In this document: one piece after another, positions 902 to 22,603 of the stretch
How positions within the stretch are numbered: position 1 is the first letter of the stretch
How the letters are laid out: every line of letters begins with the position of its first letter
IMG/VR virus record: IMGVR_UViG_3300008108_000769
Coordinates: 1 to 24,947 of that record
Source of the DNA: a virus
Reading direction: 5' to 3' (one strand)
DNA: 24,947 nt
Notes under the pieces: generated by a model
Databases searched by the model: none
What the model saw: only the letters and a program-made list of their open reading frames with translations
What the model was told of the DNA's origin: nothing
Translations under genes and position numbers: made by a program

Positions 902-3900
902 ATGGCAATTAGTAATCTATTATCAGGTAGGGTAAGGGTAGTATCCCCAAAAAACGTAACACAAGATAGGTATCAATTCGTTGATTTATCTCAAGTTGAA
1001 CCTAATTTGGGTGTTCCAAACTTTTCTGCTTCACTTTCTGGTTCACCGGCTATCGTAGTTTCGGATGACCAGGGTAATAGAGGATTTGTAAGAAGCCTTG
1101 ATTTAGATAGAGTAAGTGGACAATTTACGGGGTCTTTTACCGGTAGTGCCGAATCTTTGAGCGGTAGTTTTACTGGTTCTTATACTGGTTCGTTTTCTGG
1201 TTCATATTTTGGTGATGGTGCTGGTTTATTTAATTTACCAGATACAATTAGATTAGCAAGTGGTTCTGCAACTGCTTCTATTTCACCTAATTTTGGATTA
1301 CAAATAAATGTTGATACAACGATTGCAGAAAACTTATATGTATCAAAATCAATATACGCCGAACAATTAGTTGTTAGTATAATTTCATCATCGGTAATTT
1401 ATTCATCTGGTTCAAACAAATTTGGTGATGAATTAAGTGATAAGCAAGAATTTACTGGTAGCGTAACTATAACAGGTTCTTTAGCAGTAGAAAATCAAAT
1501 TATATTTGGAGAAGCTACGGGTTCTTCTATTTCGGCATCATTTACTGGTTCTTTCTTTGGAGATGGTGCAAATTTAATCAATCTCCCACAGGCTACAAAA
1601 TTGGCAAGTGGTAGCGTAACCGCATCAGTTAGTCCTGAAAATGGATTTTTAGTTATTTCATTAGAAAGCGGTTCGATATTTAGTGGTAGTGTAAAATTAA
1701 GTAGCGGTTCTGTATTTAGTGGTAGTGGTAGAGACCTTTTTGATATACCTGAATCCGCTTTATCATTTGCACCTTTTAGAATTTCAAGTGGTAGTGTAAC
1801 CGCATCTGTTTCTCCAGTTTATGGATTTAGAGTTGAATCACCTGATAGTGGTTCTGAATTTACTGGTAGTATTAAACTATCGTCTGGTTCATTCTTTAGT
1901 GGTTCTGGTAGATTTCTTTTTGATATTCCAGAATCCGCTTTATCATTTGCACCTTTTAGAATTGCAAGTGGTTCGGTAACTGCTTCCGTTTCTCCTGTTT
2001 ATGGGTTTAGAGTAGAATCTGCGGCAAGTGGTTCTGAATTTACTGGTAGTGTGGATATTTCCGGTTCGGTAAATGTTGATGGTGCGGTAACTGCATCTTT
2101 CTTTGTGGGAGATGGTAGTAAGTTAATAAATGTACCATCGTTAGTAGCACCGAGAATTGCAAGTGGTTCTGCAACTGCATCGATATCACCGGATAGAGGA
2201 TTAGAAATTAACACATCAGCAGCGATAAATGGATATTTAGTAGTAACCGGTTCGGTTTCTGCATCACAATATAGTGGTAGTGGTAGAGGGTTATTTGATA
2301 TCCCGCGTTCTGCATTATCGGAAGAAGTATTCCGTATTGCGAGTGGCAGTGTAACTGCATCCGTTTCACCAACCGAAGGATTTAAAGTAGAATCATTAGA
2401 AAGTGGTTCTCAATTCACTGGTTCATTATTTGTAAGTGGTGGTGTTGAATTATCTTCTGGTTCTTCGTTTAGTGGTAGTGGTGAACGATTATTTAATATT
2501 CCAAGAACGGCTTTATCACCAGACGCACTTATTTCAAACTTAATAGCGAGTGGTAGTGTAACCGCATCAGTTTCCGATTCGGAAGGATTTGTTGTAAAAT
2601 CAACTGCAAGTGGTTCTACATTTAGTGGTAGTATTTTTCTATCATCTGGTTCATTTTTTAGTGGTAGTGGTGAAAAATTATTTAATATACCTCGTTCGGC
2701 TATTTCGAATTTAGATACAAATTTAATATTTTCCGGTTCGGCAACTGCATCAATAGACCCGGTAAAAGGATTTAATGTAAACATTTATAGTAAGTTTAGT
2801 GGAAGTATGATTGTTTCATCTTCAAACTATGCAATACCAAGTCAATCATTAAATACAGTATATGATGTAACAAATAATGGATTTAGTGCATATTTGTTTA
2901 CAAACGCAATAAGTGCTTCAAATCCAACATTGACTTTAGTAAGAGGAGTTACTTATACTTTTAACGTAAACGCACTTGGACATCCTTTTTGGATAAAATC
3001 AGGAAGTAGTAAAGTTAGCGGAACGAATGATGCATATAATACAAATGTTACAAACAATGGTACTGATAATGGAACTATTATATTTAGTCCAGATGAACTA
3101 ACACCGGATAACCTATATTATATTTGTCAGAATCATAGTACTATGAATGGCGATATTACAATTGTTAATTCAATTGAAATACCTGCAGAAATTACATTCA
3201 TAGGAAAAACTAATATAACAGGAAGTTTAGGAGTAAGTGGAAGTATATTTTTAGGAAGTGGTTCATTCTTTAGTGGTAGTGGTAGAGGGTTATTTGATAT
3301 CCCACAATCGGCATTTACCGGTGATGCATTTAGAATTGCAAGTGGTTCTGTCACGGCTTCTGTTTCGCCTGTTTATGGGTTTAAAGTAGAATCTTTAGAA
3401 AGAGGTAGTGAATTTACGGGTAGTATTATTGTATCTGGCTCAATTACTGCGGAAAGAATATTTTCAGCGGATTTTACAGGTTCATTTGAAGGTGATGGTA
3501 GTAGATTAAGAAATGTACCATCGATAGAAGGAACTAGAATTGTTTCTGGTTCTGTAACTGCATCCGTTTCTCCAATTTATGGATTTAGATTAGAAGGCGG
3601 TGAAAGAGCGGAATTTTCATCTTCTATATTTGTAAGTGGTAGTTTAGGTATAGAACTTGCATCCGGTTCATCGTATTCCGGTAGTGGTGCAAGATTATTT
3701 AATATTCCAAGAACAGCATTAGCTCCTGACGCATTATTTAGTGAAAAAATTGTAAGTGGTAGTGTTACCGCATCAGTATCTCCTAATTTTGGATTTGTTG
3801 TAACTTCAATTGAAACCGGTTCTACATTCTATGGAGAAGTTAGAGTAATAACAGGTTCATCATTCTCTGGTAGTGGTAGAAAATTATTTGATATACCAGT

Positions 3901-5872
3901 AGCGGCATTATCTGATTTAGATACATCAAAAATATTTAGTGGTTCGGCAACGGCATCTATTTCACCTGATAAAGGATTTTTAGTAAATACCGGTGTAACC
4001 GTTAGAGATTACCTAATTGTAACAGGTTCAACTGATTTAAAATCTAATTTAGTTGTAACGGGTTCTTTAGTAGTAAACCAATCTGCTTTATTTAAATCTG
4101 GTATTTCATCATCGGTATTTAGTGGTAGTGGTAGAGGATTGACGGATATACCATTTTCGGCATTATCTCAAGAATTATTTAGAATTGCATCTGGATCCGT
4201 AACGGCTTCAGCATTGCCAAATAGAGGATTTATTGTTGAATCTGGTTTACTTGGTTCTCAATTAACTGGTAGTGTTTCTATTAGTGGTAGTTTATTTGCA
4301 TTTGGAAATATAGAATTACAAAGTGGTTCGGCATTTAGTGGTAGTGGTAGAAATTTATTTGATATTCCAGAATCTGCTTTATCGTTTGCACCAAATAAAA
4401 TTGCAAGTGGTAGTGTAACTGCATCCGTTTCGCCTCTATTTGGATTTAAAGTACAATCATTTGATAGTGGTTCTGAATTTACTGGTAGTGTTGATATAAC
4501 CGGAAGTCTTTTAGTAAGAGGTGATGTAACTTCAACTAGTGGTTCTTATTTCATCGGTGATGGTAGATACTTATCAAATATTACATTAGCTAATTTAGCA
4601 ATTGATTCTACAAAAATATTTAGTGGTTCGGCAACGGCATCTATTTCACCAAACGAAGGATTTGAAGTAAATGTTCATTCTAGATTTGATGGTAGTTTTA
4701 TCGTATCATCATCTGCAAGACCATTGCCTAACGAATTAATAGATAATATCATATATGTAACTAACGATGGAAGTAGTGCGTATGTAGTGAGTAATGGAAA
4801 TGTATCTGGTTCAAACGCAACATTAACATTAGTAAGGGGTGTTCAATATACTTTTAATGTAAACGCAGTAGGTCATCCATTGTGGATTAAGTTTGTTAAT
4901 TCATTTGGTACTTCTAATGCCGTTAGTCAAAGTATTACAAATAACGGAGATGATAGTGGAAATATTGTATTTACTCCGTATTCTGGTTCACCTAACACAT
5001 TATATTATAACTGCCAATTGCATTCGTCAATGGCGGGACAATTGAATATTGTTGATTTTTTAGAAATACCATCAGAAATAACATTAATAGGTGATACACA
5101 AATTACCGGAAGTTTAGATGTATCTGGTCCAATTTCGGCTTCTATGTTTAGTGGTAGTGGTAGAGGATTATTTGATATTCCTCGTTCGGCATTATCAGAA
5201 GAAGTATTTAGAATTGCAACCGGTAGTATTACCGCATCTGTAACTCCAGAAAGAGGATTTTTGGTTGAATCATTGGAAAGTGGTTCTACGTTTAGTGGAA
5301 GTATTACAATGGCTAGTGGTTCATTTATTAGTTCATCTGGTAGATTATTCTTTGATATACCTCGTTCGGCATTAACCGAAGACGCATTAATATCAGCGGA
5401 AATCAAATCTGGTTCAGTAACAGCATCAGTAAGTCCAGTTGATGGGTTTAGGGTTTTAACACCATTTACATCATCTATTGATGAATCCGGTTCATTTAGT
5501 ACGCAAATAGCATCACAATTTACTGGTTCAATTTCAGTAAGCGGAAGTATCTATGTTAATGACCCAAGTGGTGGTTTATTCATAGATTCTTCTTCATTCA
5601 TTTATGCGGAAGGTACATTTTTAAGAAATATTCCTAAATCAGCATTAACCGAAGATGCACTTATTAGTACTGAAATTAAATCTGGTTCGGTAACCGCATC
5701 AGTATCACCTGATTTTGGATTCAAAGTAATTACTCCATTTACTGGTTCGGATGTTGGTTCTCAATTTACCGGTTCAATTGAAGTTAGTGGAAGTATAAGA
5801 GCATGCTTCGGTAGCAAGTGGCGAATCTTTTATAGTAATAACAGCAAAGACTGGTTCTCAAATTGGTTCTGA
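902..5872 (+). CDS. Giant tail fibre protein, N-terminal part (frame broken near 5804)
   Basis: This is a repetitive fibre protein of the virion. Residues 1-75 form a non-repetitive head (MAISNLLSG...) likely to attach to the tail. After that come tandem beta modules: [14 protein letters not shown] units (18 by eye) alternating with F-x-G-D-G or SGSGRxLFDIPxSAL units and [14 protein letters not shown] linkers. Two cupredoxin-like domains are inserted at residues about 654-757 and 1282-1385. The ATG at 902 has GGAAAG five bases upstream and an ATATTTATA motif at 874-882. In-module sequence stops at residue 1634; the last 22 residues (CFGSKWR...) are unlike everything before them, and fibre modules resume in another frame from 5805. 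I therefore read this ORF and the next as one interrupted gene of at least 3,581 codons. Long shafts of this kind are normally trimeric. Confidence 0.85.
2861..3172 (+). other. Cupredoxin-like domain embedded in the fibre, copy 1
   Basis: Residues about 654-757 of the first fibre break from the repeat pattern. They read as beta strands ([18 protein letters not shown]), a GHPFWIK turn, and [12 protein letters not shown] near the end. The candidate copper ligands are H694, C742, H745 and M748. The spacing Cys-x2-His-x2-Met is that of amicyanin, and the order (early His, then Cys, His and Met late in the domain) is that of type-1 copper proteins. The assignment rests on motif order and strand pattern; copper binding has not been shown. 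Confidence 0.6.
4747..5056 (+). other. Cupredoxin-like domain embedded in the fibre, copy 2
   Basis: Residues about 1282-1385 repeat the domain at 2861-3172: [25 protein letters not shown] and [12 protein letters not shown]. The candidate ligands are H1325, C1371, H1374 and M1377, again Cys-x2-His-x2-Met. The surrounding modules match those around copy 1 too, so the whole block appears to have been duplicated. Ligand positions are conserved although many other residues have changed. Confidence 0.6.
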
Positions 5873-8800
5873 ATTTACTGGTAGTGTAGGAATTAGTGGT
5901 TCACTTTACGCATCTGAATTTATATTTGGTGATGGTAGATACATCACAAACGTAGTTGCAGCCGCAGCACCTTTTATCGCCAGTGGTTCGGCAACTGCAT
6001 CGGTAGCTAATGGATTTGATTTTAGAGTAATAACTTCGGCAACTGGTTCTGAAATTGGTTCTGAATTTACTGGTAGTGTTTCAGTTAGTGGTTCATTAAC
6101 TGCCGATGATTTAACTGCAAGAGGATTCTTATTTGGTGATGGTAGATATATCACAAATGTACAAGCGGCAGCAGCTCCGTTAATTGCTAGTGGTTCGGCA
6201 ACTGCATCGGTAGCAAGTGGTAAGTTCTTCCAAGTGGTAACCGGAGTTACTGGTTCTGATATAGGAACACAAATTACCGGTTCGGTTTCAATTACCGGTT
6301 CATTAACTGCATCTTTATTCATTGGAGATGGTGGTGGATTATTTAACATCCCACCTGAAGCGATTGAGAATCTTGAATTAGATAAAATTAATTCTGGTTC
6401 TGCAAGAGCAATTATTGACCCATCTAAATTGGATGTAAACGTACCAATAACTGCTGCAAGATACGATGGAGATGGTAGTGGATTATTTAATATCCCTGCG
6501 GAAGCATTGGAAGATTTACAATTAGATAGAATTATATCTGGATCTGTTGAGGCAGTTATTTCTCCAAATAAAGGATTAGAAATAAACACATCAGTAAGAA
6601 TATTCTCTGGTTCGTTGGCAGTGAGTGGTGGTATATTTGTAACTGGTTCAGATGTTGTACTTCAATCTGGAAGTAGATATGTGGGAGATGGTAGTGGGTT
6701 AAGAAATATTAACATTGCGAATTTAGCATTTGAAACATCAATATTAAAATCGGGTTCTCAATTTGCAGAAATATCTCCTGATTTAGGATTTAGAGTAAGT
6801 ACTTCATCTTCAATTGATGGTAACTTAACCGTAACACATAATATATCGGCGGTAGATATAACTGGTTCACACGCAGTATTCGCACCAATCGTAAGTGGTG
6901 GTTTAATTGGTACATACAATTTCCAAGGAGTAGGACCAACTGCATCTGCTGAATACGATATGTTAAGGTTTGATGAAAATAGAGGATATTTTGTTCCTCA
7001 ACCTGAGACATCATTAACTGAAACCGTATCATTTAGTAATATAAGTGATTTAACAATTGTACACAATTTAGGAATCCTTTACCCAATGGTACAGGTTTAC
7101 GCAACTGGTTCGGAAGACCAAATTATCCCTGGTACAATTAAATCAATCGATGAAGATACAATTCAAATTAAATTTGCTGGATTAACTTCTGGACATGTTG
7201 TAATTGGTAGTGGTGGTTCTTTGATTAATGGTACTATAAATGGAGATAGAGTATTTGGTGAAGTATTATCAGCATCATATGCTCGTAGAGCTGAAGTTGC
7301 TGTATCTGTTCAAGGATTTGATTCTGCATCTTTAGCATCGTTATCCGCTTCATTAGGGGATTCATCTCAATATGTAAGAAACAATCAAACCGCATCAATG
7401 AGTGTGTTTAGTGCAGTAAGTTCTTCTTACGCATTAACCGCATCTTTCGCTTTAAATGGCGGTGGTGGTGGAACTGAATTATTTATTTATCATACTGGTT
7501 CGTTAGTAAAATCTCAAACCGCAAAAATAAACTTTAGTGGTTCTGGGGTAGATGTGATTTCATCTGGTTCGGATGGAGTATTGGTAACAATAAATGGTGG
7601 AGCAGCTCAATCATCTCAAACGGCATCTTATATTTTATCAACTGGAGTAGATGGACCGTTGGGAATGGATAGTATAACTTTTTCAAGAACCGCATCATAC
7701 GCATTATTTGCATTAAGTACTCCATCATCTGATACATCTTCATTCTTACAAATTAACACAGACCAAACAATAAACGCATCACTTACAATTAGTGGAAGTT
7801 TAGGTGTTAGTGGTAGTATAATGCTTGGGGGAATCGTATCGGCATCATATGATGAGGTTGTAACGTGGGACCCAATAACTAAAAAATTAGGATATAGAAA
7901 CGTAGCAGCTGCTGTAGGTTCATCTGGAACCGGTGGTTCTTCTGGTTCTTCTGGTACATCTGGATTTACCGGTACATCTGGTTCATCTGGTAGTTCTGGT
8001 TCTTCTGGTACATCTGGAAGCAGTGGAAGTTCGGGAGTAGATGGTACATCTGGTTCATCCGGTAGTTCGGGAAGTTCAGGTTCAACTGGAACTTCTGGTT
8101 CATCTGGAAGTAGTGGTAGTAGTGGTTCATCTGGTTCTTCTGGCTCATCTGGAAGCTCTGGTACATCTGGTTCTTCTGGTTCATCTGGAAGTTCCGGTAC
8201 TAGTGGCACTAGTGGCACATCTGGTACATCCGGTTCGGACGGAAGTTCTGGAACATCTGGTACATCCGGGTCATCGGGAACATCAGGAAGTTCAGGTAGT
8301 TCAGGAACATCTGGTACATCCGGGTCATCTGGTTCATCAGGAACATCTGGCACATCAGGTTCTTCTGGTTCTTCTGGAAGTGGAGGTTCATCTGGTAGTA
8401 GTGGTTCAACTGGTTCTGCAGGAACTTCTGGTTCATCTGGAAGTGGAGGTTCATCTGGTAGTTCAGGTAGTTCAGGTAGTTCAGGAACTTCTGGTACATC
8501 GGGTTCTTCTGGTTCATCTGCAACATCGGGTACTAGTGGTAGTTCCGGAACATCTGCATCTTCTGGTAGTGGTGGTACTGCCGGGACATCTGGCACCTCT
8601 GGTACATCAGGTACGAGTGGCACATCTGGTACATCTGGTTCTTCTGGTAGTGGCGGAACATCTGCTACATCTGGAACATCGGCATCTTCTGGTACCGGTG
8701 GTTCAGCAGGTACATCTGGTACCTCTGGAACTTCTGGACAAAGCGGCACATCTGGTACATCTGGTTCATCTGGTTCTTCTGGTACATCCGGGTCATCTGG

Positions 8801-11648
8801 TTCCGATGGTAGTGGTGGTTCATCTGGTACAACCGGTACATCTGGTAGCTCTGGTACAACCGGGTCAGCGGGTTCTTCCGGTTCTTCTGGTACATCTGGT
8901 TCATCCGGAGAAGATGGGTCATCTGGAACATCAGGAAGTTCGGGTTCATCTGGCTCTGCAGGAACTTCTGGTACAAACGGTTCAGCAGGTTCTTCTGGTA
9001 GTTCTGGTTCATCTGGAACCGCAGGAAGTAGTGGAAGTAGTGGCTCATCTGGTTCATCTGGTAGTAGTGGTTCAACTGGTTCTGCAGGAACTTCTGGTTC
9101 ATCTGGAAGCAGTGGCACATCTGGCACATCTGGTACCGATGGTACATCTGGCAGTAGTGGCACGAGTGGAAGTAGTGGCTCATCTGGTACAACCGGTTCA
9201 TCTGGTTCTTCTGGAAGTAGCGGAAGCAGTGGAAGTTCAGGGGTAGATGGAACATCAGGAACTTCAGGTTCATCTGGTACATCTGGTAGTTCTGGTACAA
9301 CTGGTTCATATGGTACATCTGGAAGTAGTGGCTCATCTGGTAGTAGCGGCACATCTGGTAAAGATGGAACATCGGGTTCATCTGGAACATCTGGAAGTAG
9401 TGGTTCATCCGGGTCATCTGGAACTTCTGGATTAGACGGAACTTATTTTGGTTCTTCAGGAACTTCGGGTACTTCTGGCTCATCTGGAAGCAGTGGCACA
9501 TCTGGTACATCGGGTTCTTCTGGAACAAGCGGTGTTGATGGAACATTCTTTGGAAGTAGTGGTACATCCGGTGAATCTGGTACATCGGGTTCATCAGGAT
9601 TAACAGGAACTTCTGGTACAACTGGTGTTGATGGTTCATTTGGAACATCTGGTAGTAGTGGTATCGATGGAACATTCTTCGGTAGTGCTGGTACATCTGG
9701 TTCTTCTGGTAGTAGTGGCACATCCGGTTCATCTGGTTTATCTGGTACCGATGGTACTTCGGGTAGTTCCGGTAAAGATGGAACATTCTTTGGTTCACAT
9801 GGTACTTCGGGAACATCTGGAGAAAGTGGCACTTCGGGTACATCAGGTTCTTCTGGTTCATCTGGTAAAGATGGCACATCTGGTACATCTGGTTTAGACG
9901 GAACATTCTTTGGTTCACATGGTACATCTGGTAGTAGTGGTTCAACTGGTTCTGCAGGAACTTCTGGAGAAAGTGGCACTTCGGGTACATCTGGAGAAAG
10001 TGGCACATCTGGTTCATCTGGTTCATCTGGTACTTCCGCGGAAGGTTCATCCGGTACTTCTGGTTCTTCTGGAGAAAGTGGCACATCAGGAACTTCTGGT
10101 TCTGATGGCACATCTGGTTCAGCGGGTACATCAGGTAGTTCTGGTAAAGATGGGACATTCTTTGGTTCTTCAGGGACTTCTGGTACATCTGGAAGTAGTG
10201 GCTCATCTGGTACAACTGGTTCATCTGGTAGTGCTGGAACGGGTGGTACTTCGGGAGTAAGTGGCACATCAGGTAGTTCTGGTAAAGATGGAACATTCTT
10301 TGGTTCTTCAGGAACTTCTGGAGAAAGTGGTACAGCCGGTACATCGGGTAGTTCTGGACAAAGTGGAACTGATGGTAGTGGTGGTTCATCGGGTTCTTCT
10401 GGAACTTCTGGTAAAGATGGTACATTATTTGGTTCATCTGGAACTAGTGGAGAAAGTGGTACATCTGGAACCAGTGGAGAAAGTGGCACATCAGGAACTT
10501 CTGGTTCTTCTGGTACATCGGGTAGTTCTGGGTTAGATGGTACTTATTTTGGTTCATCTGGTACATCGGGTGTAAGTGGAACTTCGGGTTCTTCTGGACA
10601 AAGTGGCACATCTGGTGTGAGTGGAACTACTGGTACATCTGGTTCATCTGGTAAAGATGGAACTTTATTTGGAAGTAGTGGTACATCTGGTGAATCTGGT
10701 ACATCGGGCGTAAGTGGTACATCTGGAACTTCTGGATTAGGTACAAATGGTACATCTGGAACTTCTGGATTTGATGGAACATATTTTGGTAGTAGTGGTA
10801 CATCTGGTAAAGATGGTACAAATGCAACCGGTGAAGCAGGAACATCTGGTACATCGGGTACAACACCTCCAGGCTTTACATCGGGAACATCTGGTGAAAC
10901 TGGAACATCTGGTACATCGGGTACAACGCCTCCGGGCTTCACATCCGGTACATCGGGTAGTTCTGGAGAAAGTGGTACTGCTGGTACATCTGGTACAACT
11001 CCTCCTGGTTTCACATCTGGTACATCTGGTACTTCTGGAATAAGTGGCACGGCTGGTACATCTGGTACAACTCCTCCTGGTTTTACATCTGGTACTTCTG
11101 GACAAAGTGGTACATCCGGTACATCTGCACCTGGATTTACATCAGGTACATCAGGTACATCTGGGTTCCCATTAGCGGGTAATACCGAAGATGGTATCTT
11201 AACTTATAATGCCGTTTCATTTGGTGCAAACGTTGAATCGAATTTAACATTCAATGGTAGTACGTTAAGTGTAACTGGTAATGTAACGGTAACAACATCA
11301 TTAGCGGCAACTACATTCGTTTCGGCAACTACATTTAGAGAAACTTATGCAGACCAAGGGACAGGTGGAAGTGTAACAATAGACCTTTCAACCGGAAATA
11401 ACTTCAGAAGACAATTTAATACCAATTCAACCGTTACATTCACAAACGCACCGGGTTCAAACGCATTTGGATTTACATTAGTTACTGTGAATGCTGGAGC
11501 ATATACGATAACTTGGCCTGGTAATGTAGATTGGGCTGGTGGTAGCCAACCAACATTAACATCCGTTGGAACTGATATTTTGGTATTCTATACTTATGAT
11601 GGCGGTACTACATATTATGGATTTGTTAGTGGTAAAAACTTTAGTTAA
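5805..11648 (+). CDS. Giant tail fibre protein, C-terminal part (continuation of the 902 gene in another frame)
   Basis: The frame is open from 5805 and starts inside a repeat (ASVASGESF), so it has no start of its own. The first usable start codon is a GTG at 6234 without a ribosome site. Numbering from 5805: residues 1-400 continue the GDGRYITNV / SGSATASVA modules. About 406-473 is a domain with HNLG, YPMVQVY and IPGTIKSID motifs, seen in other phage fibres. About 474-704 is linker beta structure. Residues 705-1787 are a Gly-X-Y tract. Residues 1788-1947 form a tip with [20 protein letters not shown] and a final [17 protein letters not shown], a known style of phage fibre end. The stop is six bases before the next gene. 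The probable role is host contact at the distal end of a long trimeric fibre. The coding call is secure; the intact length is not, because repeats may be collapsed. Confidence 0.82.
7917..11165 (+). repeat. Collagen-like Gly-X-Y tract, about 1,083 residues, X and Y mostly Ser or Thr
   Basis: Almost every third residue is Gly, giving runs such as [13 protein letters not shown]. The DNA is an imperfect 9-base periodicity (ggtacatct, ggttcatct, ggttcttct, ggaagtagt). Proline is nearly absent except in the GTTPPGFTS cassettes at the 3' end. From 9429 the tract is interrupted at intervals by DGT(F/Y/L)FG. Such tracts in phage fibres are expected to be rod-like trimers. Collagen triple helix is the default reading; a polyglycine-II type bundle is an alternative. 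Confidence 0.9.
8394..9967 (+). repeat. Three exact copies of a 38-base segment within the collagen-like tract
   Basis: The same 38 bases, starting ggtagtagtggttcaactgg and encoding [13 protein letters not shown], occur at 8394-8431, 9060-9097 and 9930-9967. Flanking codons differ between copies. Synonymous codon choice elsewhere in the tract is varied, so exact copies suggest recent internal duplication or conversion. Confidence 0.8.
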
Positions 11649-13693: not shown

Positions 13694-16600
13694 ATGAGTA
13701 GTTTTATAGGTATTGACCCAAATGGATTAAATCAAGTAAGTTCTAGCGTAATATCACTTTATGTTAGTGGAAGCCCTGTTATAAGTGCTTCCCCAAATTC
13801 AATTAGTATTGTAAACGCGATACCTTTTTCTGCTTCTAAAATTGAAACATCAATAATCGATACTCCAGCATCAGAAACACTTACAATTAATGCAAATACA
13901 TTAATAACTGGGTCGGTATCGGCATCAATATTTAGAGGAGATGGTAGTGGACTATTTAATATACAAGCGGATTCGATTGGTGATATCAATAGAATAAAAT
14001 CAGGTTCTGCAGTTGCACAAATTTCACCTAATAACGGATTGGTAGTAAATGTACCAACAAATATAAGTGGTGGATTAACTCTAACTGGAAATGCAAATGT
14101 AACCGGTAATGCAAATATAATTGGTAATATTAATGTTAGTGGTAAGATTACATCAACTGAAATAAGTACAACATTTATTTCATCATCCGTAATTTATTCA
14201 TCTGGTTCAAATAAATTTGGGGATGCTACATCCGATAGACAAGAAATCACAGGTAGTTTAAACATAAGTGGTTCTATATTCGTTGGAACTCCTGATACGA
14301 TACCAACCGATAACACAACAAATGAAGTGTTGGTATTAAATACAACTACTGGTAGAGTTAGTAGAAGATTTGCAGCAGCAACTTCTGGTACTTCTGGTAC
14401 ATCTGGAACAAGTGGCAGCTCTGGTACAACTGGTTCTGCGGGTTCTTCAGGAACTTCAGGTAGCTCAGGTTCATCTGGTTCTTCTGGAACATCAGGTTCT
14501 TCTGGTAGTTCTGGTTCTTCTGGAACATCCGGGTCATCTGGTACCTCTGGTTCATCTGGAAGTAGTGGTACATCTGGTAGTTCAGGTAGTTCAGGTTCTT
14601 CTGGTAGTTCAGGTAGTTCAGGTTCTTCTGGTACATCGGGAAGCGGTGGTTCATCGGGTTCATCTGGTTCATCGGGAACATCAGGTTCTTCTGGTTCATC
14701 TGGAAGTTCTGGTTCATCAGGAACTAGTGGAGTATCCGGTAAAGACGGTTCTTCTGGTTCTTCTGGTAAAGATGGTACATCTGGTATAAGTGGCTCATCT
14801 GGTAGTTCAGGTACTTCCGGTTCATCTGGAACATCTGGTAGTGGAGGTTCTTCTGGCTCATCGGGAAGTTCTGGTATATCGGGAGGAACGGGTACACCTG
14901 GTACTTCTGGTTCATCTGGTACATCCGGGTCATCTGGTACTTCTGGTAAAGATGGAAGTAACGGAACATCTGGTTCATCTGGTACTTCTGGTAGCGGAGG
15001 TTCATCTGGTCTAACTGGAGCAGGTGGTGGTTCTGGTACTGCTGGTAGTGGGGGAACGAGTGGCTCATCTGGTAGTTCTGGTTCTTCTGGAAGTAGTGGC
15101 ACATCTGGTTCATCTGGTTCTTCTGGTAGTAGTGGAGTAGGTGGAGCGAGTGGCAGTTCAGGTTCATCGGGTAGTTCGGGTACTTCTGGTTCATCTGGAA
15201 GTTCTGGTACATCTGGTTCATCTGGTACAAGTTCAACGGGTGGTACGGGAGGTTCTGCAGGGTCTTCTGGTAGTTCAGGTACTTCTGGTTCATCTGGTAC
15301 TTCTGGACAAAGTGGAAGTAATGGAAGTAGTGGTACATCTGGTAAAGATGGTGCAGTAGGTACATCGGGAAGTTCAGGTTCATCTGGTTCTTCTGGAGTA
15401 TCTGGTAGTAGTGGCACATCTGGTAGTAGTGGAAGTTCTGGTACAAGTGGAAAAACTGGAGCAGATGGCACGAGTGGTAGTTCTGGTACATCCGGGTCAT
15501 CTGGAACAAGAGGCACCGGTGGTAGTTCAGGCACATCAGGTTCATCTGGAGTATCCGGTTCATCCGGAAGTAGCGGTACTTCTGGTTCATCTGGAAGCAG
15601 TGGCTCATCAGGCAGTAGTGGTTCATCTGGAACATCTGGAAGTAGTGGTTCATCCGGGTCATCTGGAACATCTGGTACACAAGGTACATCTGGTTCATCT
15701 GGATTATTAGCATTAACTGGTACAACTGATAATGGTGTAATTACATTAAACGGAACTGCACCAAATGGAACGGTTGAAAGTAATTTAACTTTTAATGGAA
15801 CTTTATTGACAGTTACTGGTAATGCGGTTATTACCGGTGACTTGACAGTTAGTGGTACAACAACTACAATTAATACTGAAACAATCCTATTAGCGGATAA
15901 TATTATAACTCTTAATTCAAACTTCACAACTGGCACACCAACTGAAAATGCGGGTATTGAAGTTAGAAGAGGTTCATTATCAACTGTTTCATTCTATTGG
16001 GATGAATCAAATGATAGATGGACAGCAGATAACACTTTATCAGTAAGTGGAAATGTAGTTTTGAGTGGTACGATTGATACAGGACAAGGTGCAACCGAAG
16101 TTTACTTAATGAATCAGAATATAAGAACAACTGATTCTCCAACTTTTGCTGGACTTACACTTAATGGTGATTTAACTTTATCTTACACATATCCAAGAAT
16201 TAATTTAACGGATACTAATAATGATTCCGATTATTCTATTATAAATGCGGATGGTTCGTTTGTTGTTTATGACGTAACAAATAATGCAAATAGATTTACA
16301 ATATCAAACACAGGCCTTTTAACGCATAGAAGTATAACGGGTGGTACTGCTGGTAGTACTGTGGCGGGTCATATCAAAAACTTCTCATTAGGTGGCGGAA
16401 GTTACAATAGTACATGGAATAGTGGTAATTCGGTAATGTTGTATATTGAAGGATATTCAAATGATGCAGGCGATAGTGTTTATCCAGTTTATATTGAAGA
16501 TGAAAATAATATAGTTGATTTTTATTTATTCTCTGGAACTGACCAAAGTTTAGGTACAAAACAGGCTTACATAGCAGGTAATACTGGTATAGGTACTGCA

Positions 16601-19600
16601 CCAAATAATTCATATAGATTAAATGTTGGTGGTTCAATTAATATACCAAATGACGGATTATTATCTGTAAATAATGAACCAAACACTTGGGGAGCAAGAT
16701 TTAGAACAACTACTTCTACTACAAATTTAGGAGCACAACTTAAAAATATTATTTGGACAGGTGGTGGTACTAATGAAGGATTTGCCGTAAGTGGAGTTGG
16801 TACTGGTGGAGCTGCATTAGAAGTTAGAAATGATGGTATTGTTTGGGCAAAGAGTTCAGTATATTCAAATGCAGCCGGAAATGGTGGGGCATTTTATTTA
16901 TCGGATACAGCGGCTGGTATTTATAGAGATAATACCTATGATGTAACCGTTATACAAAATAATTCATCTGGTAATATATTAAACTTAGCAAGTGCCGGTG
17001 ATGTTCGTGTAAGTATTGATTCTAATAATAATGATACCGGTGTAAGATTTATAGTTGGTAATAATGCAATTAAATCAACGAATGAATTATTCTCTGTAAA
17101 TGAAAGTGGTGTCGCATATGCATCTTCTGATTTTAGAGCACCAATATTTTATGATTCCGATAATACATCATATTATACCAATCCATTATCAACATCTAGA
17201 TTAAACGCATTACAAGTAAATAAAACTTATCAGAACGAACAATATATTGATGTTCCTGGTACATTTAATGGTAATAGAAGATGGGTAAGATTTAGTATTA
17301 GTAGATTCAATAGTGGTGGTTCACCAGTTAGACTTTCTATATCTCGTGCAATTAGTGATAATGGTAGTAACCCGTATGGTGGTTGTACTGCGGAATTTGT
17401 AATAAATTCTAGAGAATGGCATAGTGGGCAAGAAAATATGTGGTATTTCTATACTGAACATGGTTCTTACAACGCTAACCAAAATCCATATGGATATTAT
17501 ATCTACCAAGCTGGTCCAAGAGATTTAGCCGGTAGTGGATATTGGTTCTATATGTTATTATTAGATGGAGTTCGTTATAGAATGTCTGTATCTGCGGACA
17601 TGAATTTCAATAATGATAACATTGGTTCAATTGAATATAGTGTAGCTGATCCGGGTGGTGTACCAAGAGTTCCACTAGGTTCTGGTGTAATTGGTAACAA
17701 TACAACTTATAATCAAACTACATCAACATATGCAATGCATAGTATTATGTATGATTATGATGATAGAAACTATTATATTGACCCAAATAGTACTTCAAGA
17801 ATTAGAAAAACTAATTTAGTAGCAAGTGGTACGAGTTGGGATGATGGATTGAATTTATATTCTTCTGATGAAAGTAATAGATGGAACTTATTAGTTGATA
17901 ATGGTGCATCCGATTATTTAAGATTTGCGTATAACAACTCCGAAGATTTTAGATTACAACCAGATGCGACTATTTCGTATAATTCAATGTACGCACCAAT
18001 TTATTATGATTTAGATGATTCAACATATTATACAAATCCTGCAAATGGCGGATTTGTACTACAAGGTGGGTCATCAAATCGAGTTAAATTCTACACAAAC
18101 GATAGTGGGTTTAGAGTTCAAAATCCAGAAGGTAATGGTGTAAGTGATGTAAGGTTAGGAGCAGCTTGGGGAGCACCTGGTGTATATTCATCAACGTATT
18201 TAATGTTGGGTTCTGAAAACTATGTTGAATTTAGAATTGGAAACTCACAAAAAGGATATATGGATAGTTCATCTAACCTATATTCTTTCGGTTCGGTTCG
18301 TTCTCCAATTTATTATGATTACACATCTACTGCATATTATTTAGACCCGGCATCTACATCTAATCTGAATGAAGTTTACGCTTATTCTTATAGAGGTAAT
18401 GGTAACGTTGATACTGGATATTTCTTAAATCCAGCTTCAACCGCAACATCTTTAAGAATTCAAGGTGGTATTAAACAAAGAAATATTGTTGGTAGACCAT
18501 ACGCAGTTTGGGGTGCAACTGGTGCAACCGGTGCCGTAATTATTAAATTCCCTGGTGGAACCGGTAACTATGGTATGATTCACGCCGTAATTGACATTTA
18601 TGAATATAATGGAAATGCGGCAGCAACTGTAATTGTTGGTGGACATAACTGGAATGGTGCGTGGTATAACTATAACGCAAACGTAGTAGGATATACTGAT
18701 AAGCAAGTTAGAGTTGGTGTTAAAGATGGTAGATATTGTATCGTAATTGGTACTGGTGGTTCTTCTTGGTCTTATGGACAAGTTGTTCTTCGTAAAATAC
18801 AAAATGGTACATATTACGATGGTGTAATGGATGTTGCTGAAGGATATTCGGCGGCAATCGAATCTGATTCATATAGCTGGATTTCTGGTGACCTTCAGGT
18901 ATTAAGAAGTAGAGACATTTATGGTGTAAACTATGTACAAGCTCCAATATTCTACGATACAAACTCAACTTATTATTTTAATGGTGATAGTACAACTGCG
19001 ATAAGAACTCATGGTAGTTGGAGAGCAGACTCTTCTGGATGGGATGGTGAATATGCTGGAAAAATTCAATATCATAGTCCTGCTTCTACTAATAACTTCA
19101 ATCAAACGGAGCAAAATGGTAGAATGTGGTATAGTAACTATTTGGTAAGTAGAAATAGTGGTGGTTTGATGGGTGATTATAATAACGCAGGTACATCGGC
19201 AAAAGTAATTTGGACGATTGGTGAATCTTGGCCACTTGGTAATATGTACGGATTGGGTTATGAGTATGGAAGTGGATATGGACATCATTTGGCATTAAAA
19301 GATAATGGTACAACTTATTCTCGTTTAGGTTTTGCAGGTGGTGCATTTATTGGTGGTACTGTATCCGTTGGTGGTGCAATGTACGCTCCAATTTATTACG
19401 ATTCAAATGATGGTGGTTATTATGGTGATTTTGCATCAACATCTCGTACAAACTATATTGTTGGTAATAGAATTAAACTTGTTAATAACGTAAACAACGA
19501 ACCTCGTTGGGATTTCTCAGCATATGTAGTTGAGGCACAACATTGGTATGGTAACAACTCATCTATGACAATGTATATGGGTGAGGGTAGTAATACTATT

Positions 19601-22600
19601 CAAGTACCTGGTAGTGGTGGTATTAGACCTCAAATAATTTACGATTATAATGATAATGGCTGGTATCTTAATATGGATGGTACATCTAACTTAAATAGAT
19701 TTACTCAAAGAACACATGCCGCAATGAATAGGGGTTATCATTGGATTACTCCTAGATTCGATTATACAAGTGATGTAAACTATTGGACGGGTACTTTTGG
19801 ATGGGGTACATCTGCTGGAAACTGGGATAACGCTTGGAAATCTGGTTTTGGGGGATGGGATATTTGGGGTGGTGGAACTGGTCACCCTCAAGGCGGTGGT
19901 TATGTTCACGCACAAGGTATAGTTTCGGGTCAACACTACGCATCATCTGATGGTGGTTCTGCGTATGGTTGGCAAATGGTAGGTGCGCATGACGCAGGAA
20001 GCCGTTGGTGGTTAAGAGGTAAATGGGGTGGTACAACATATCCTTGGTATGAGGTGATGTTGTACGATAGAAACATAGGTGGTGGTACATTCTATGCCGG
20101 ATATTGGTATGATGGTAATAACACCGGATATTATATAGACCCGAATGGTTCTTCTCAAATGAGTGCGGTATATGCAAATGACTGGTTCAGAGCACAAGGT
20201 TGTGCTGGATTCTATTTCCAATCATATAGTAGAGGACTATGGTCACCTGAATGTGAGGGTAATCCTTATGGGCACGTTGCAACAAACGGAGGTGGTAGAA
20301 ACGGATGGGGTGGATATGGTATATTCAGCCGTTATACCCTGATGAGTACCGGTGGTGACAACGTTGGTATGCATGACAGTGCTAGAGGATGGGTGTGGTA
20401 TATGAGTGGTGGCGAACTAAACTTATATTATGCCGGTTCGGATAGAGCATCGATGAGGTCACATGGTATTTATGCACATTCCGATGTTAGAGCAGCCATA
20501 TATTATGACCACGATACTGGATATTATTTTGATGGTAATGGTACATCGAATATGAATAGATTTACCGATAGAACAAAAGCTTCTATGGGTAATACCGCAA
20601 AATATAATTCACCTCGTTGGGATTTCACCGGTGATAGTAACTATTGGGTTGGTTCAATGGGTTGGGGTACAACTGACCTTAACTCCGTTTGGAACTGGGG
20701 TAGTGGATTCTTTGATAGCTGGGGTAATCCTGGTAACCAACCAGCGGGTACATCTCACTGGACCGGTATTCAAACCGCTCACTATACTTGTGGATATGGT
20801 TGTGGATACGGTTGGCAAATGGTTGGTGGACCTATTAGTGGATTGTGGTTTAGAAATGTTTGGTCTTCACCGTCTGGTTGGAGAAAGATTGCAATGTATG
20901 GTCTGAATGAATATTCTAGTGATTTTTATGCAACTATCGTTTATGATTCAAATAATACCGGATTCTATTCAGACCCTAATGGTACATCTGCATTAAGCCG
21001 TATTACCGTAGACAGTGAAATTATTTCTAGAAACGGTTGTGGTAGAATTTATCTTCCTGGTAACTTACATATAGATTCGTATTGCGGATATTCAATCTAT
21101 ATGAACTATTATACCAATCAATGGATGAGATACTTTGGACCATCTGAATATTATGGAAATGGTATTTATGGTGTTGGTGAAATATATTCTAATATTTTTT
21201 ATGATAGAAACGATTCTGGTTATAGATTAGACCCGAATGGTACATCTCAATTACACTATGTATTAGCAAACAACTGGTTCAGACCACAAGGATGTACCGG
21301 TGTTTATTGGGAATCTTATGGTAGAGGTATTTGGTCTCCAGAGTGTGAGGGCAATCCATATGGCCATATAGCAACTTATGGTGGTGGTAGAAATGGATGG
21401 TATGGGTATGGTATTGGTAGTAGATATACCTTTATGAGTACTATGGGTGATAACGTTGGTCTTCACGATAGTGCTAGAGGTTGGATTTGGTACATGAGTG
21501 GAGCTGAGTTGAATATGTACTATGCTGGTTCTAGAAGAATGGTTACTACTGGATGGGGTGTTTATGTAGACCAATATTTAGAAGCAGGTGGTTCATTAAG
21601 AGCGCCAATTTTCTATGATAACCAAGATACTGGATATTATTTAGACCAACACAATACTGATAACCAAGGTTTAAGAATTAGAGGTGGTACACTTCACGGA
21701 CCTAACTGGTGGTGGGGAGCTTATTTAAGAGTTGGTGCTAATAACCATATAGGTGATTGGGCACAAATGTTTACATCAAATGGTAACTTACACATTGATG
21801 CTAGACCGGGATATCCAATGTATCTTAACTGGCATACCGGTAATACCGTTCTTATAAACAGCGATGTACAGGCTAGAATTTATTACGATCTTGACGATAC
21901 TGGATACTATTTTGGTAGTAGTTCTGGTGATGGTAGATTTAGATACACCAACACAAATGGTGGTTTCTCTCAACCAAACTATGAATTCCAATTTGTAACA
22001 AATAGAGCATATTATGTAAACGATACCAATACTGCAAACTTACAAGCCTGTGCAAATAGTAACTTAACCGCATTCTTCTCTTGGCATAAATACGGTGTAT
22101 TTGCAACTAATATGGGACTTGATGTTGATAACGTAATTCGTATCGGTGGATGGTCAATGGGTGCAAATAGATGGCAATTGACACCGGGTGGTGATATGTA
22201 TGCAGCAGGTAACATTATTGCATATTCATCGGATGAAAGATTAAAAGAAAATATCACTACAATTTCAGATGCATTAGGAATGTTGAAAAGATTGAGAGGT
22301 GTTTACTTTGATTGGAAAGATATTGTTGATGATTTAGGATTTAATCCGGTTGATAGGCATGATATTGGGGTAATTGCACAAGAAGTTGAGAAAGTAATAC
22401 CACAAGCTATTAAACCTGCTCCGTTTGATGCATTATCCGATGGTAAATCAATATCCGGACAAAACTATAAAACTGTACAACTTGAAAAGATTGTACCTGT
22501 ATTGATACAATCAGTTAAAGAGCAGCAAGAAATTATAGAAAAACAAAACAAAGAAATTGAAGAACTAAAAACAATAGTTCATAAAATTTTAAATAAAAAC

Positions 22601-22603
22601 TAA
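13694..22603 (+). CDS. Giant tail fibre with collagen-like tract and C-terminal Peptidase_S74 chaperone (2,969 aa)
   Basis: Domains in order: residues 1-231, head and beta modules, including [19 protein letters not shown] and [15 protein letters not shown]; 232-670, Gly-X-Y tract of Gly/Ser/Thr; about 671-800, a shared fibre unit ([30 protein letters not shown]); about 1149-2746, some 13 YYDxxNTGYYxDPxxTSxLN repeats separated by Trp- and Tyr-rich beta domains, two kinds of which are duplicated; 2843-2969, the S74 domain. S74 chaperones drive trimerisation and then cut themselves off, so the mature fibre should end near residue 2846. A single uninterrupted frame of this size argues that it is functional. 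AGGTAG precedes the ATG at 13694. It is probably a receptor-binding fibre; the Trp/Tyr-rich part would suit glycan contact, though I see no recognisable enzyme active site. Confidence 0.9.
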   Translation: MSSFIGIDPNGLNQVSSSVISLYVSGSPVISASPNSISIVNAIPFSASKIETSIIDTPASETLTINANTLITGSVSASIFRGDGSGLFNIQADSIGDINRIKSGSAVAQISPNNGLVVNVPTNISGGLTLTGNANVTGNANIIGNINVSGKITSTEISTTFISSSVIYSSGSNKFGDATSDRQEITGSLNISGSIFVGTPDTIPTDNTTNEVLVLNTTTGRVSRRFAAATSGTSGTSGTSGSSGTTGSAGSSGTSGSSGSSGSSGTSGSSGSSGSSGTSGSSGTSGSSGSSGTSGSSGSSGSSGSSGSSGSSGTSGSGGSSGSSGSSGTSGSSGSSGSSGSSGTSGVSGKDGSSGSSGKDGTSGISGSSGSSGTSGSSGTSGSGGSSGSSGSSGISGGTGTPGTSGSSGTSGSSGTSGKDGSNGTSGSSGTSGSGGSSGLTGAGGGSGTAGSGGTSGSSGSSGSSGSSGTSGSSGSSGSSGVGGASGSSGSSGSSGTSGSSGSSGTSGSSGTSSTGGTGGSAGSSGSSGTSGSSGTSGQSGSNGSSGTSGKDGAVGTSGSSGSSGSSGVSGSSGTSGSSGSSGTSGKTGADGTSGSSGTSGSSGTRGTGGSSGTSGSSGVSGSSGSSGTSGSSGSSGSSGSSGSSGTSGSSGSSGSSGTSGTQGTSGSSGLLALTGTTDNGVITLNGTAPNGTVESNLTFNGTLLTVTGNAVITGDLTVSGTTTTINTETILLADNIITLNSNFTTGTPTENAGIEVRRGSLSTVSFYWDESNDRWTADNTLSVSGNVVLSGTIDTGQGATEVYLMNQNIRTTDSPTFAGLTLNGDLTLSYTYPRINLTDTNNDSDYSIINADGSFVVYDVTNNANRFTISNTGLLTHRSITGGTAGSTVAGHIKNFSLGGGSYNSTWNSGNSVMLYIEGYSNDAGDSVYPVYIEDENNIVDFYLFSGTDQSLGTKQAYIAGNTGIGTAPNNSYRLNVGGSINIPNDGLLSVNNEPNTWGARFRTTTSTTNLGAQLKNIIWTGGGTNEGFAVSGVGTGGAALEVRNDGIVWAKSSVYSNAAGNGGAFYLSDTAAGIYRDNTYDVTVIQNNSSGNILNLASAGDVRVSIDSNNNDTGVRFIVGNNAIKSTNELFSVNESGVAYASSDFRAPIFYDSDNTSYYTNPLSTSRLNALQVNKTYQNEQYIDVPGTFNGNRRWVRFSISRFNSGGSPVRLSISRAISDNGSNPYGGCTAEFVINSREWHSGQENMWYFYTEHGSYNANQNPYGYYIYQAGPRDLAGSGYWFYMLLLDGVRYRMSVSADMNFNNDNIGSIEYSVADPGGVPRVPLGSGVIGNNTTYNQTTSTYAMHSIMYDYDDRNYYIDPNSTSRIRKTNLVASGTSWDDGLNLYSSDESNRWNLLVDNGASDYLRFAYNNSEDFRLQPDATISYNSMYAPIYYDLDDSTYYTNPANGGFVLQGGSSNRVKFYTNDSGFRVQNPEGNGVSDVRLGAAWGAPGVYSSTYLMLGSENYVEFRIGNSQKGYMDSSSNLYSFGSVRSPIYYDYTSTAYYLDPASTSNLNEVYAYSYRGNGNVDTGYFLNPASTATSLRIQGGIKQRNIVGRPYAVWGATGATGAVIIKFPGGTGNYGMIHAVIDIYEYNGNAAATVIVGGHNWNGAWYNYNANVVGYTDKQVRVGVKDGRYCIVIGTGGSSWSYGQVVLRKIQNGTYYDGVMDVAEGYSAAIESDSYSWISGDLQVLRSRDIYGVNYVQAPIFYDTNSTYYFNGDSTTAIRTHGSWRADSSGWDGEYAGKIQYHSPASTNNFNQTEQNGRMWYSNYLVSRNSGGLMGDYNNAGTSAKVIWTIGESWPLGNMYGLGYEYGSGYGHHLALKDNGTTYSRLGFAGGAFIGGTVSVGGAMYAPIYYDSNDGGYYGDFASTSRTNYIVGNRIKLVNNVNNEPRWDFSAYVVEAQHWYGNNSSMTMYMGEGSNTIQVPGSGGIRPQIIYDYNDNGWYLNMDGTSNLNRFTQRTHAAMNRGYHWITPRFDYTSDVNYWTGTFGWGTSAGNWDNAWKSGFGGWDIWGGGTGHPQGGGYVHAQGIVSGQHYASSDGGSAYGWQMVGAHDAGSRWWLRGKWGGTTYPWYEVMLYDRNIGGGTFYAGYWYDGNNTGYYIDPNGSSQMSAVYANDWFRAQGCAGFYFQSYSRGLWSPECEGNPYGHVATNGGGRNGWGGYGIFSRYTLMSTGGDNVGMHDSARGWVWYMSGGELNLYYAGSDRASMRSHGIYAHSDVRAAIYYDHDTGYYFDGNGTSNMNRFTDRTKASMGNTAKYNSPRWDFTGDSNYWVGSMGWGTTDLNSVWNWGSGFFDSWGNPGNQPAGTSHWTGIQTAHYTCGYGCGYGWQMVGGPISGLWFRNVWSSPSGWRKIAMYGLNEYSSDFYATIVYDSNNTGFYSDPNGTSALSRITVDSEIISRNGCGRIYLPGNLHIDSYCGYSIYMNYYTNQWMRYFGPSEYYGNGIYGVGEIYSNIFYDRNDSGYRLDPNGTSQLHYVLANNWFRPQGCTGVYWESYGRGIWSPECEGNPYGHIATYGGGRNGWYGYGIGSRYTFMSTMGDNVGLHDSARGWIWYMSGAELNMYYAGSRRMVTTGWGVYVDQYLEAGGSLRAPIFYDNQDTGYYLDQHNTDNQGLRIRGGTLHGPNWWWGAYLRVGANNHIGDWAQMFTSNGNLHIDARPGYPMYLNWHTGNTVLINSDVQARIYYDLDDTGYYFGSSSGDGRFRYTNTNGGFSQPNYEFQFVTNRAYYVNDTNTANLQACANSNLTAFFSWHKYGVFATNMGLDVDNVIRIGGWSMGANRWQLTPGGDMYAAGNIIAYSSDERLKENITTISDALGMLKRLRGVYFDWKDIVDDLGFNPVDRHDIGVIAQEVEKVIPQAIKPAPFDALSDGKSISGQNYKTVQLEKIVPVLIQSVKEQQEIIEKQNKEIEELKTIVHKILNKN
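14387..15703 (+). repeat. Collagen-like Gly-X-Y tract, about 439 residues
   Basis: Gly occurs at nearly every third position with Ser or Thr between, in the same 9-base DNA style as the tract at 7917-11165. It differs in lacking the DGT(F/Y/L)FG interruptions and the TTPPGFTS cassettes. A few charged triplets (GKDG, GKTG, GTRG) are scattered through it. The two tracts share enough sequence to recombine with each other. Confidence 0.9.
17138..21930 (+). repeat. YYDxxNTGYYxDPxxTSxLN fibre repeats, about 13 copies
   Basis: Recurrent units such as APIFYDSDNTSYYTNP, SPIYYDYTSTAYYLDP, GYWYDGNNTGYYIDP and IVYDSNNTGFYSDP occur at irregular spacing, each usually closed by a (T/S)S-x-(L/M)N turn and then a variable domain. 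They mark domain boundaries in the fibre. One further partial unit (TGYFLNPAST) lies near 18415. The motif is known from other S74-type fibres. Confidence 0.85.
19694..21550 (+). repeat. A-B-A-B duplication of two Trp/Tyr-rich domains in the S74 fibre
   Basis: Domain A (NRFT.RT.A.M, then PR(F/W)D(Y/F)T.D.NYW, then YGWQMVG) occurs at about 19694-20090 and 20554-20930. Domain B (WFR.QGC.G, WSPECEGNPYGH, DSARGW.WYMSG.ELN.YYAGS) occurs at about 20169-20470 and 21261-21550. YYD repeats lie between them. B copies are very similar and A copies more diverged. Cys in QGC and SPECEG are conserved in both B copies. Confidence 0.82.
22220..22603 (+). other. Peptidase_S74 intramolecular chaperone domain with predicted self-cleavage site
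   Basis: Residues about 2843-2969 begin AYSSDERLKENI. By analogy with endosialidase chaperones the cut is between S2846 and D2847, with K2851 as the partner of the catalytic Ser (same +5 spacing). GVIAQEVEKVIP is the second family hallmark. The end (IQSVKEQQEIIEKQNKEI) is a heptad coiled coil, as expected for a trimer clamp. All key residues are present, so the domain looks active. Confidence 0.93.

What the first reader, a model, noticed from the sequence alone, without database searches (positions are those of the whole stretch)
2861..3172. A cupredoxin-like domain with a complete type-1 copper ligand set inside a phage tail fibre
Seen: residues about 654-757 of the first fibre hold GHP (H694) and C742-x2-H745-x2-M748, in the order and late-domain placement of type-1 copper proteins. 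Known: amicyanin uses the same Cys-x2-His-x2-Met spacing. Inference: the fibre may bind copper, for stability, for sensing the host surface or for redox contact. A metal-binding electron-transfer fold in a virion fibre is unusual, and I know of no function assigned to it.
Basis: partly seen in the sequence, partly recalled or inferred. Interest (0 to 1): 0.75.

Follow-up and report, generated by a model that had tools for sequence, protein, structure and literature searches.

The report
Blue-copper-type domain in phage tail fibre
A long tail fibre of an uncultured phage carries, twice, a small domain predicted to fold like the blue copper electron-transfer proteins and holding all four of their copper-holding residues; the same domain sits in fibre and baseplate proteins of many cyanobacterial viruses, so some phage particles may carry copper.

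Summary
AlphaFold2 gives a confident eight-strand model (pLDDT 95); all 50 listed Foldseek PDB rows are cupredoxin-fold copper proteins, and a profile alignment lays the four residues on rusticyanin's ligands. The domain is not private to this phage: it is the unnamed C-terminal part of cyanophage "baseplate wedge tail fibre connectors" (phrog_677), and occurs in many uncultured-phage and bacterial proteins. The ligands are kept in 23 of 24 sampled loci of the GenBank phage collection. A ligand-blind scan also found a large sister family, in another phage protein, that keeps the fold and has lost the site; so has a third copy in a near-identical record of this phage. Loss is nearly all-or-none, which fits a metal site. 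Most likely: a type-1-like mononuclear copper site in a virion structural domain, probably loaded outside the cell and stabilising the fibre. Copper, ligand distances and function are untested. Electron transfer or copper-guided adsorption is possible but unsupported. Novelty lies in the setting, not the fold.

The parts
902..5872 (+). Fibre ORF, 1656 aa, made of SGS-rich repeats (SGSxTASVSPxxGF) with two cupredoxin domains. Its end (about 5804-5872) is out of register with a sister contig.
2858..3166 (+). Cupredoxin domain 1 (res ~653-755), eight predicted strands, pLDDT 95
2981..2983 (+). H694, predicted copper ligand (GHPF)
3125..3127 (+). C742, predicted thiolate ligand, at the end of the penultimate strand
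3134..3136 (+). H745, predicted ligand in the C-terminal loop
3143..3145 (+). M748, predicted axial ligand
4757..5056 (+). Cupredoxin domain 2 (res ~1286-1385), not folded on its own; ligands H1325 (4874), C1371 (5012), H1374 (5021), M1377 (5030)
2660..3260 (+). Cassette copy A: fibre repeat + cupredoxin + IPAEITFIG linker
4550..5160 (+). Cassette copy B, 54% identical to copy A over 196 columns

Best explanation
Each of the two domains is a cupredoxin with an intact type-1-like mononuclear copper site (His, Cys, His, Met; amicyanin-type short loop), used as a globular module within a long tail fibre. Shown here, as prediction or sequence: the fold (copy 1), the ligand set and its order, its conservation, its near all-or-none loss in relatives, and the duplication. 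Inferred: that the site holds one copper ion; that the fibre is made with the site empty in the host cytosol and takes up copper after lysis; that the metal has a structural use, most simply to lock and stabilise the domain in the exposed fibre. I put copper binding at about 0.7; most of that weight (0.58) goes to a structural use and about 0.1 to a use at host contact.
For: Confident AlphaFold2 model (pLDDT 95.1, pTM 0.87). Foldseek PDB: 50 of 50 listed rows are cupredoxin-fold copper proteins, best rusticyanin E 4.9e-5; VIA-align Z 10.6 to the cupredoxin domain of a copper nitrite reductase, 9.9 to a rusticyanin mutant (9.1 wild type), 9.0 to auracyanin A. Profile A1 against PDB sequences: 31 of 31 hits at E<=10 are copper proteins, and the rusticyanin alignment lays GHP, C, H, M on its His, Cys, His, Met (that these are its ligands is recalled). 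In the model C97 ends strand 92-97, H100 and M103 lie in the loop before the last strand. Ligand columns rank among the top 10 of 91-111 columns in three homologue sets, two of them found through ligand motifs. Phage-collection set, found by tblastn: 23 of 24 loci keep H and CxxHxxM. Of 228 rows, 181 keep His-Cys-His, 46 keep at most one of the three (one of these has gaps there) and 1 keeps two; rows are related, not independent. One cellular row has Gln at the axial place. The fibre otherwise has almost no His or Cys.
Against: No metal was measured and no ligand distances could be read. The fold persists without the site: a sister family of 41 domains (model pLDDT 97.6 and cupredoxin matches) and a third copy in a near-identical record of the phage, YPFW/YYVSQNRSSM. 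The larger profile A2 gave only 7 PDB hits at E<=1, 3 of them copper proteins. Pfam's best match is below its gathering score; NCBIfam gives nothing for the window's own domain. The residue after the first His is Pro, where Asn or Ser is usual in known cupredoxins (recalled). Virions assemble in a cytosol poor in free copper (general knowledge). The stabilising role rests on no test here.
Confidence: 0.58

Rival explanations
1. The domain is a purely structural cupredoxin-fold bead; the ligands are inherited and no metal is bound in nature.
For: Sister family and a paralogue in the near-identical record keep the fold or sequence family without the site. Cytosolic assembly with little free copper (general knowledge).
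Against: Ligand columns are among the most conserved; loss is nearly all-or-none; both window copies keep all four while 46% of the cassette columns differ.
Confidence: 0.22
2. Copper in the fibre acts at the host surface: a copper counterpart of the iron 'Trojan horse' idea, or a redox trigger with a host partner.
For: Conserved complete site in fibre and baseplate-connector proteins; named phage records with the domain are nearly all cyanophages, 123 of 127. Iron analogue proposed in PMC11705849 (passages seen).
Against: No partner, receptor or redox evidence. The cyanophage bias may reflect shared descent. The window phage's host is unknown: no Photo_RC or NblA match in its three closest records. 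The domains lie among the fibre repeats, not at a recognisable tip.
Confidence: 0.1
3. The site binds another metal (zinc, iron) or the lone Cys makes intermolecular bonds.
For: The same ligands can take other metals in vitro (recalled). One Cys per domain.
Against: Such uses do not need the full cupredoxin ligand set in cupredoxin places; His and Cys are mostly lost together.
Confidence: 0.08
4. Chance motif in a beta-rich fibre.
For: The C-x2-H-x2-M pattern is short; one unrelated case in the six frames.
Against: Two copies, hundreds of relatives, confident fold.
Confidence: 0.01

Closest known systems
phrog_677, cyanophage gp9-like baseplate wedge tail fibre connector (C-terminal domain)
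   Same: The same domain (E 1e-20, profile 295-412 of 412). Connector and fibre relatives keep H and CxxHxxM in 23 of 24 sampled loci.
   Different: Syn9 gp9 has a T4_gp9_10_N N-terminus and one such domain at its end; the window protein is a long repeat fibre with two internal copies.
Rusticyanin, auracyanin and the cupredoxin domain of three-domain copper nitrite reductase
   Same: Fold (Z 9.0-10.6) and ligand order.
   Different: 16-22% identity in those rows; rusticyanin has longer ligand loops (C-x4-H-x4-M, seen in the alignment); electron carriers or enzyme domains, not virion parts.
Amicyanin (TIGR02657)
   Same: C-x2-H-x2-M ligand loop (amicyanin's spacing recalled; an azurin with engineered CAAHAAM loop, 3fs9, is listed).
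   Different: No NCBIfam match for the window's domain; 3 of 10 relatives match weakly, best E 0.0034.
Iron-binding HxH motifs of T4 gp37 and alterophage R22Y fibres
   Same: Metal held in a tail fibre (T4 by crystallography, R22Y by prediction; PMC11705849, passages).
   Different: Octahedral iron held by His pairs, no globular metal domain and no Cys ligand (recalled).
Cyanophage-encoded plastocyanin (petE)
   Same: Cupredoxin encoded by phages (PetE listed in PMC3037559, passages).
   Different: Separate host-like metabolic protein, not a structural part.

Membership tests
Cupredoxin fold (type-1 copper proteins) | Greek-key beta-sandwich of about eight strands | tested here: met
   Prediction only, copy 1: 8 strands, pLDDT 95.1; 50 of 50 listed Foldseek rows; VIA Z up to 10.6 over 100 residues, rmsd 2.6
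Cupredoxin fold (type-1 copper proteins) | Ligands His ... Cys-xn-His-xn-Met in order, Cys ending the penultimate strand, His and Met in the next loop | tested here: met
   aligned to rusticyanin's His, Cys, His, Met
Cupredoxin fold (type-1 copper proteins) | Four ligand side chains within bonding distance of one point | not testable with these tools
Cupredoxin fold (type-1 copper proteins) | Binds copper, blue band near 600 nm | not testable with these tools
   Needs purified protein
Amicyanin (TIGR02657) | Score in the curated amicyanin model | tested here: not met
   0 NCBIfam families for the window's domain at E<=1
Amicyanin (TIGR02657) | C-x2-H-x2-M loop | tested here: met
   (amicyanin's own spacing recalled)
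Pfam Copper-bind PF00127 / Cupredoxin_1 PF13473 | Match over the gathering score | tested here: not met
   Window domain: neither listed at E<=1; weak in 4 and 2 of 10 relatives, best E 0.0029 and 0.014
Pfam PF25489 At5g54830-like domain | Match over the gathering score (27 bits) | tested here: not met
   21.0 bits
Binuclear CuA domain | Second Cys in the ligand loop (recalled) | tested here: not met
   One Cys per domain
phrog_677 gp9 connector, whole protein | N-terminal gp9/10 region plus C-terminal domain | tested here: not met
   Best stretch is profile 262-411 only; no T4_gp9_10_N listed for the fibre at E<=1 while Syn9 gp9 has it

The most novel reading that the evidence does not exclude
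Virions of this phage and of many cyanophages are copper metalloparticles: fibre and baseplate-connector cupredoxins take up copper from the water (two sites per chain here; up to 36 per virion if there are six trimeric fibres, an assumption), and the copper is used at host contact, to engage a surface metal receptor or to sense the redox state of the cell surface before the baseplate fires.
Probability: 0.1. Interest if true: 0.9.

Novelty: new variant of a known kind. Interest (0 to 1): 0.6.

Why it matters
If the site holds copper, some abundant aquatic phages carry a blue-copper centre as a structural part, a setting that none of the ten literature searches made here turned up. It would add copper to the discussion of metals in phage tails, give an optical or EPR handle on virions, and bear on copper chemistry in water. 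Even without copper, naming this recurrent domain as a cupredoxin annotates a part of cyanophage baseplate connectors for which PHROGs names no fold, and the loss of the site in a sister family gives a natural control.

Tried and rejected
Chance motif: rejected (second copy, relatives, fold). CuA site: rejected (one Cys per domain). Membership in amicyanin or the Pfam copper families: not met by score. 'Unique to this fibre': rejected. Cyanobacterial host for the window phage: not shown. Photo_RC (PF00124) was found in 1 of 10 records searched, not in the three closest ones; NblA in 0 of 5, but that 0 includes Mel-JY01, a phage of a cyanobacterium, so it says little. The nearest tail sheaths, Microcystis phage Mel-JY01 (41%) and LR756508 (38%), have no match to the domain profile (0 of 2; the same profile matched 14 of 14 records). 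Plasmids: no match. Single-sequence phmmer against PDB gave only a laccase at E 3.5.

Literature, all ten searches: cupredoxin + phage + tail fiber, 0 papers; cupredoxin + cyanophage, 1, on Borgs; plastocyanin-like + phage + tail, 1, an archaeal genome; cupredoxin + giant virus, 0; six broader ones of which only part of the hits was listed: 20 of 4,713; 18 of 18; 25 of 82; 15 of 28; 15 of 17; 12 of 258. I saw titles and starts of abstracts there, none of which described this domain; the library lacks most subscription journals. PMC3037559, PMC10665884 and PMC11705849 were seen as passages, and section 26 of the first in full; its Table S8, which would tell whether gp9 was detected in virions, was not seen.

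Bias: sets V and C were found through patterns that include ligand motifs, so their ligand conservation is inflated. The phage-collection set is 24 loci that I chose from 120 listed rows. Rows from one contig recur (L002 and L249; L072 and L240), so rows are not independent. The count of full-site rows in U is 22 and 21 plus one HCHS (alignment difference). The one-clade support for the site-less family is 0.948 with ligand columns and 0.502 without.

Full report
OBSERVATION. A search for the same pattern found a second, complete copy in the same protein: H1325, C1371, H1374, M1377 (also found by a protein search of the window record at 4700-5074, 53% identity). The two sit in cassettes of about 195 residues that are 54% identical and include the flanking fibre repeat and linker, so the cassette was probably duplicated. 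His and Cys are otherwise almost absent: 1 of each in the remaining 1444 residues.

FOLD. An alignment of 51 domains (A2; window copy 1 first, the rest from IMG/VR loci) gave an AlphaFold2 model with mean pLDDT 95.1 and pTM 0.87, eight strands. The Cys closes the strand at 92-97, His100 and Met103 lie in the loop before the last strand 104-110, and His49 precedes the strand 51-54, as in type-1 copper proteins (recalled). Copy 2 was not folded on its own. Foldseek against the PDB listed 50 rows, all cupredoxin-fold copper proteins, best rusticyanin (E 4.9e-5; query TM-scores modest, 0.38-0.62). VIA-align gave Z 10.6 (rmsd 2.6, 100 residues) to the cupredoxin domain of Hyphomicrobium copper nitrite reductase, 9.9 to a rusticyanin mutant (2.4, 96) and 9.0 to auracyanin A (2.4, 91). 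By sequence, profile A1 (10 rows) against PDB chains returned 31 hits at E<=10, all copper proteins, best E 0.0099, and the rusticyanin alignment puts GHP and C/H/M over its His, Cys, His and Met. The wider profile A2 was less clean: 3 of 7 hits at E<=1 were copper proteins. Ligand distances could not be measured because no coordinates are given out.

WHO HAS IT. tblastn in 50,697 phage records: 127 at E<=1e-3, of them 123 named Synechococcus, Prochlorococcus or cyanophage, 3 marine virus, 1 Actinomycetia phage; copy 2 found 190, of them 186 cyanophage-named. Many listed rows lie in the gp9 'baseplate wedge tail fibre connector', whose family phrog_677 ends in this domain; Syn9 gp9 has T4_gp9_10_N in front. 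In 9 of the 24 loci that I fetched, the next gene has a further divergent copy. BFVD matches include cyanophage fibres and connectors and 'beta-sandwich' proteins of Pithovirus and Marseillevirus records. A scan of genome contigs gave 57 loci in Bacteroidota, Alphaproteobacteria, myxobacteria, archaeal and other assemblies, some possibly viral. Of 9 such proteins scanned, 5 carry DUF7282, CHRD or Lipoprotein_15 ('secreted repeat') domains and end in this domain. No match in plasmids.

LIGAND TEST. In 24 loci of the phage collection picked by me from the tblastn lists (mostly cyanophages, one single-cell marine virus, one Actinomycetia phage), 23 keep H and CxxHxxM; RB11-B has lost all but Met. 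Eleven further, shorter hits in the same loci: 10 have CxxHxxM, one does not. Of 104 unique long IMG/VR domains, 99 have GHP and CxxHxxM, 3 more have NHP or SHP with the motif, and 2 have lost Cys and the second His, one of them also the first; but those scans used ligand motifs. Of 65 unique full domains, 22 keep all four ligands and 43 do not. Of the latter, 41 form one group in a different phage protein (MATxxRTVDFLPEIFQT type, three examples read). Pooled, 228 rows: 181 keep His-Cys-His, 46 keep at most one (one of these has gaps there), 1 keeps two. On a tree without the ligand columns this needs 5 changes, against a minimum of 36 in 200 label shuffles. The site-less family still folds as a cupredoxin by prediction (pLDDT 97.6; the 50 listed Foldseek rows are copper proteins and relatives, among them human factor VIII and ceruloplasmin; VIA Z up to 10.4). 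So the fold alone does not show copper, and the ligands are not needed for the fold; their retention elsewhere, and joint loss, is what one expects of a metal site. Rows are related, so these counts are not independent events.

THE SAME PHAGE. A 54.7-kb record (G001) matches the window at 99.98% over the compared stretch and has three matches to the profile. The third lies in another fibre-like protein, of which the first 1353 aa were fetched, and has lost the site (YPFW, YYVSQNRSSM). So at least two complete and one empty site occur in one phage, if the two records are of one phage.

HOW IT MAY WORK. Most likely a copper-holding structural bead in an exposed fibre (see best explanation). Iron held by His-x-His motifs in T4 gp37 is the nearest precedent for metal in a fibre (PMC11705849, passages). 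Electron transfer has no partner in evidence; use at host contact cannot be excluded. The host of this phage is unknown: its three closest records show no Photo_RC or NblA match, and its sheath is nearest to Microcystis phage Mel-JY01 at 41%, in which the domain profile finds nothing.

VERDICT. The fold and ligand set are well supported as predictions; copper and function are open. New variant of a known kind: a cupredoxin as a repeated structural module of phage tails.

Noticed in passing
window 828/829 and 5803/5804: Against record IMGVR_UViG_3300032093_000178 (otherwise about 99.7-100% identical here) the window lacks 140 and 83 bases at these places. The ends of ORFs 56-865 and 902-5872 probably differ for that reason; in that record the fibre frame is open for 3614 aa, so the fibre and the collagen-like ORF 6234-11648 may be one gene there.
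   Followed up: partly
L324 (G001:46500-54729), minus strand, residues 621-727 of a frame cut by the stretch at 1353 aa: Third copy of the domain in a near-identical record of this phage, with the copper site lost.
   Followed up: partly
L248, L212, L253 and others, about residues 205-303 of MATxxRTVDFLPEIFQT proteins: Large family of site-less cupredoxin-fold domains in an unnamed protein of phage contigs, some over 100 kb.
   Followed up: partly
L124, L194-L198, L200, L201, L204: The gene after cyanophage gp9 holds a second, divergent HP ... CxxHxxM domain.
   Followed up: no
window 6234-11648: Very long collagen-like GTSGSSG repeat region (Pfam Collagen E 6.7e-105).
   Followed up: no
window 13694-22603: 2969-aa tail fibre with collagen-like repeats near its start (PHROG matches) and a C-terminus that looks like an S74-type self-cleaving chaperone (by eye).
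   Followed up: no
L203 (Synechococcus phage RB11-B): Only one of the 24 phage-collection loci in which His, Cys and His are all replaced; a natural negative control.
   Followed up: no
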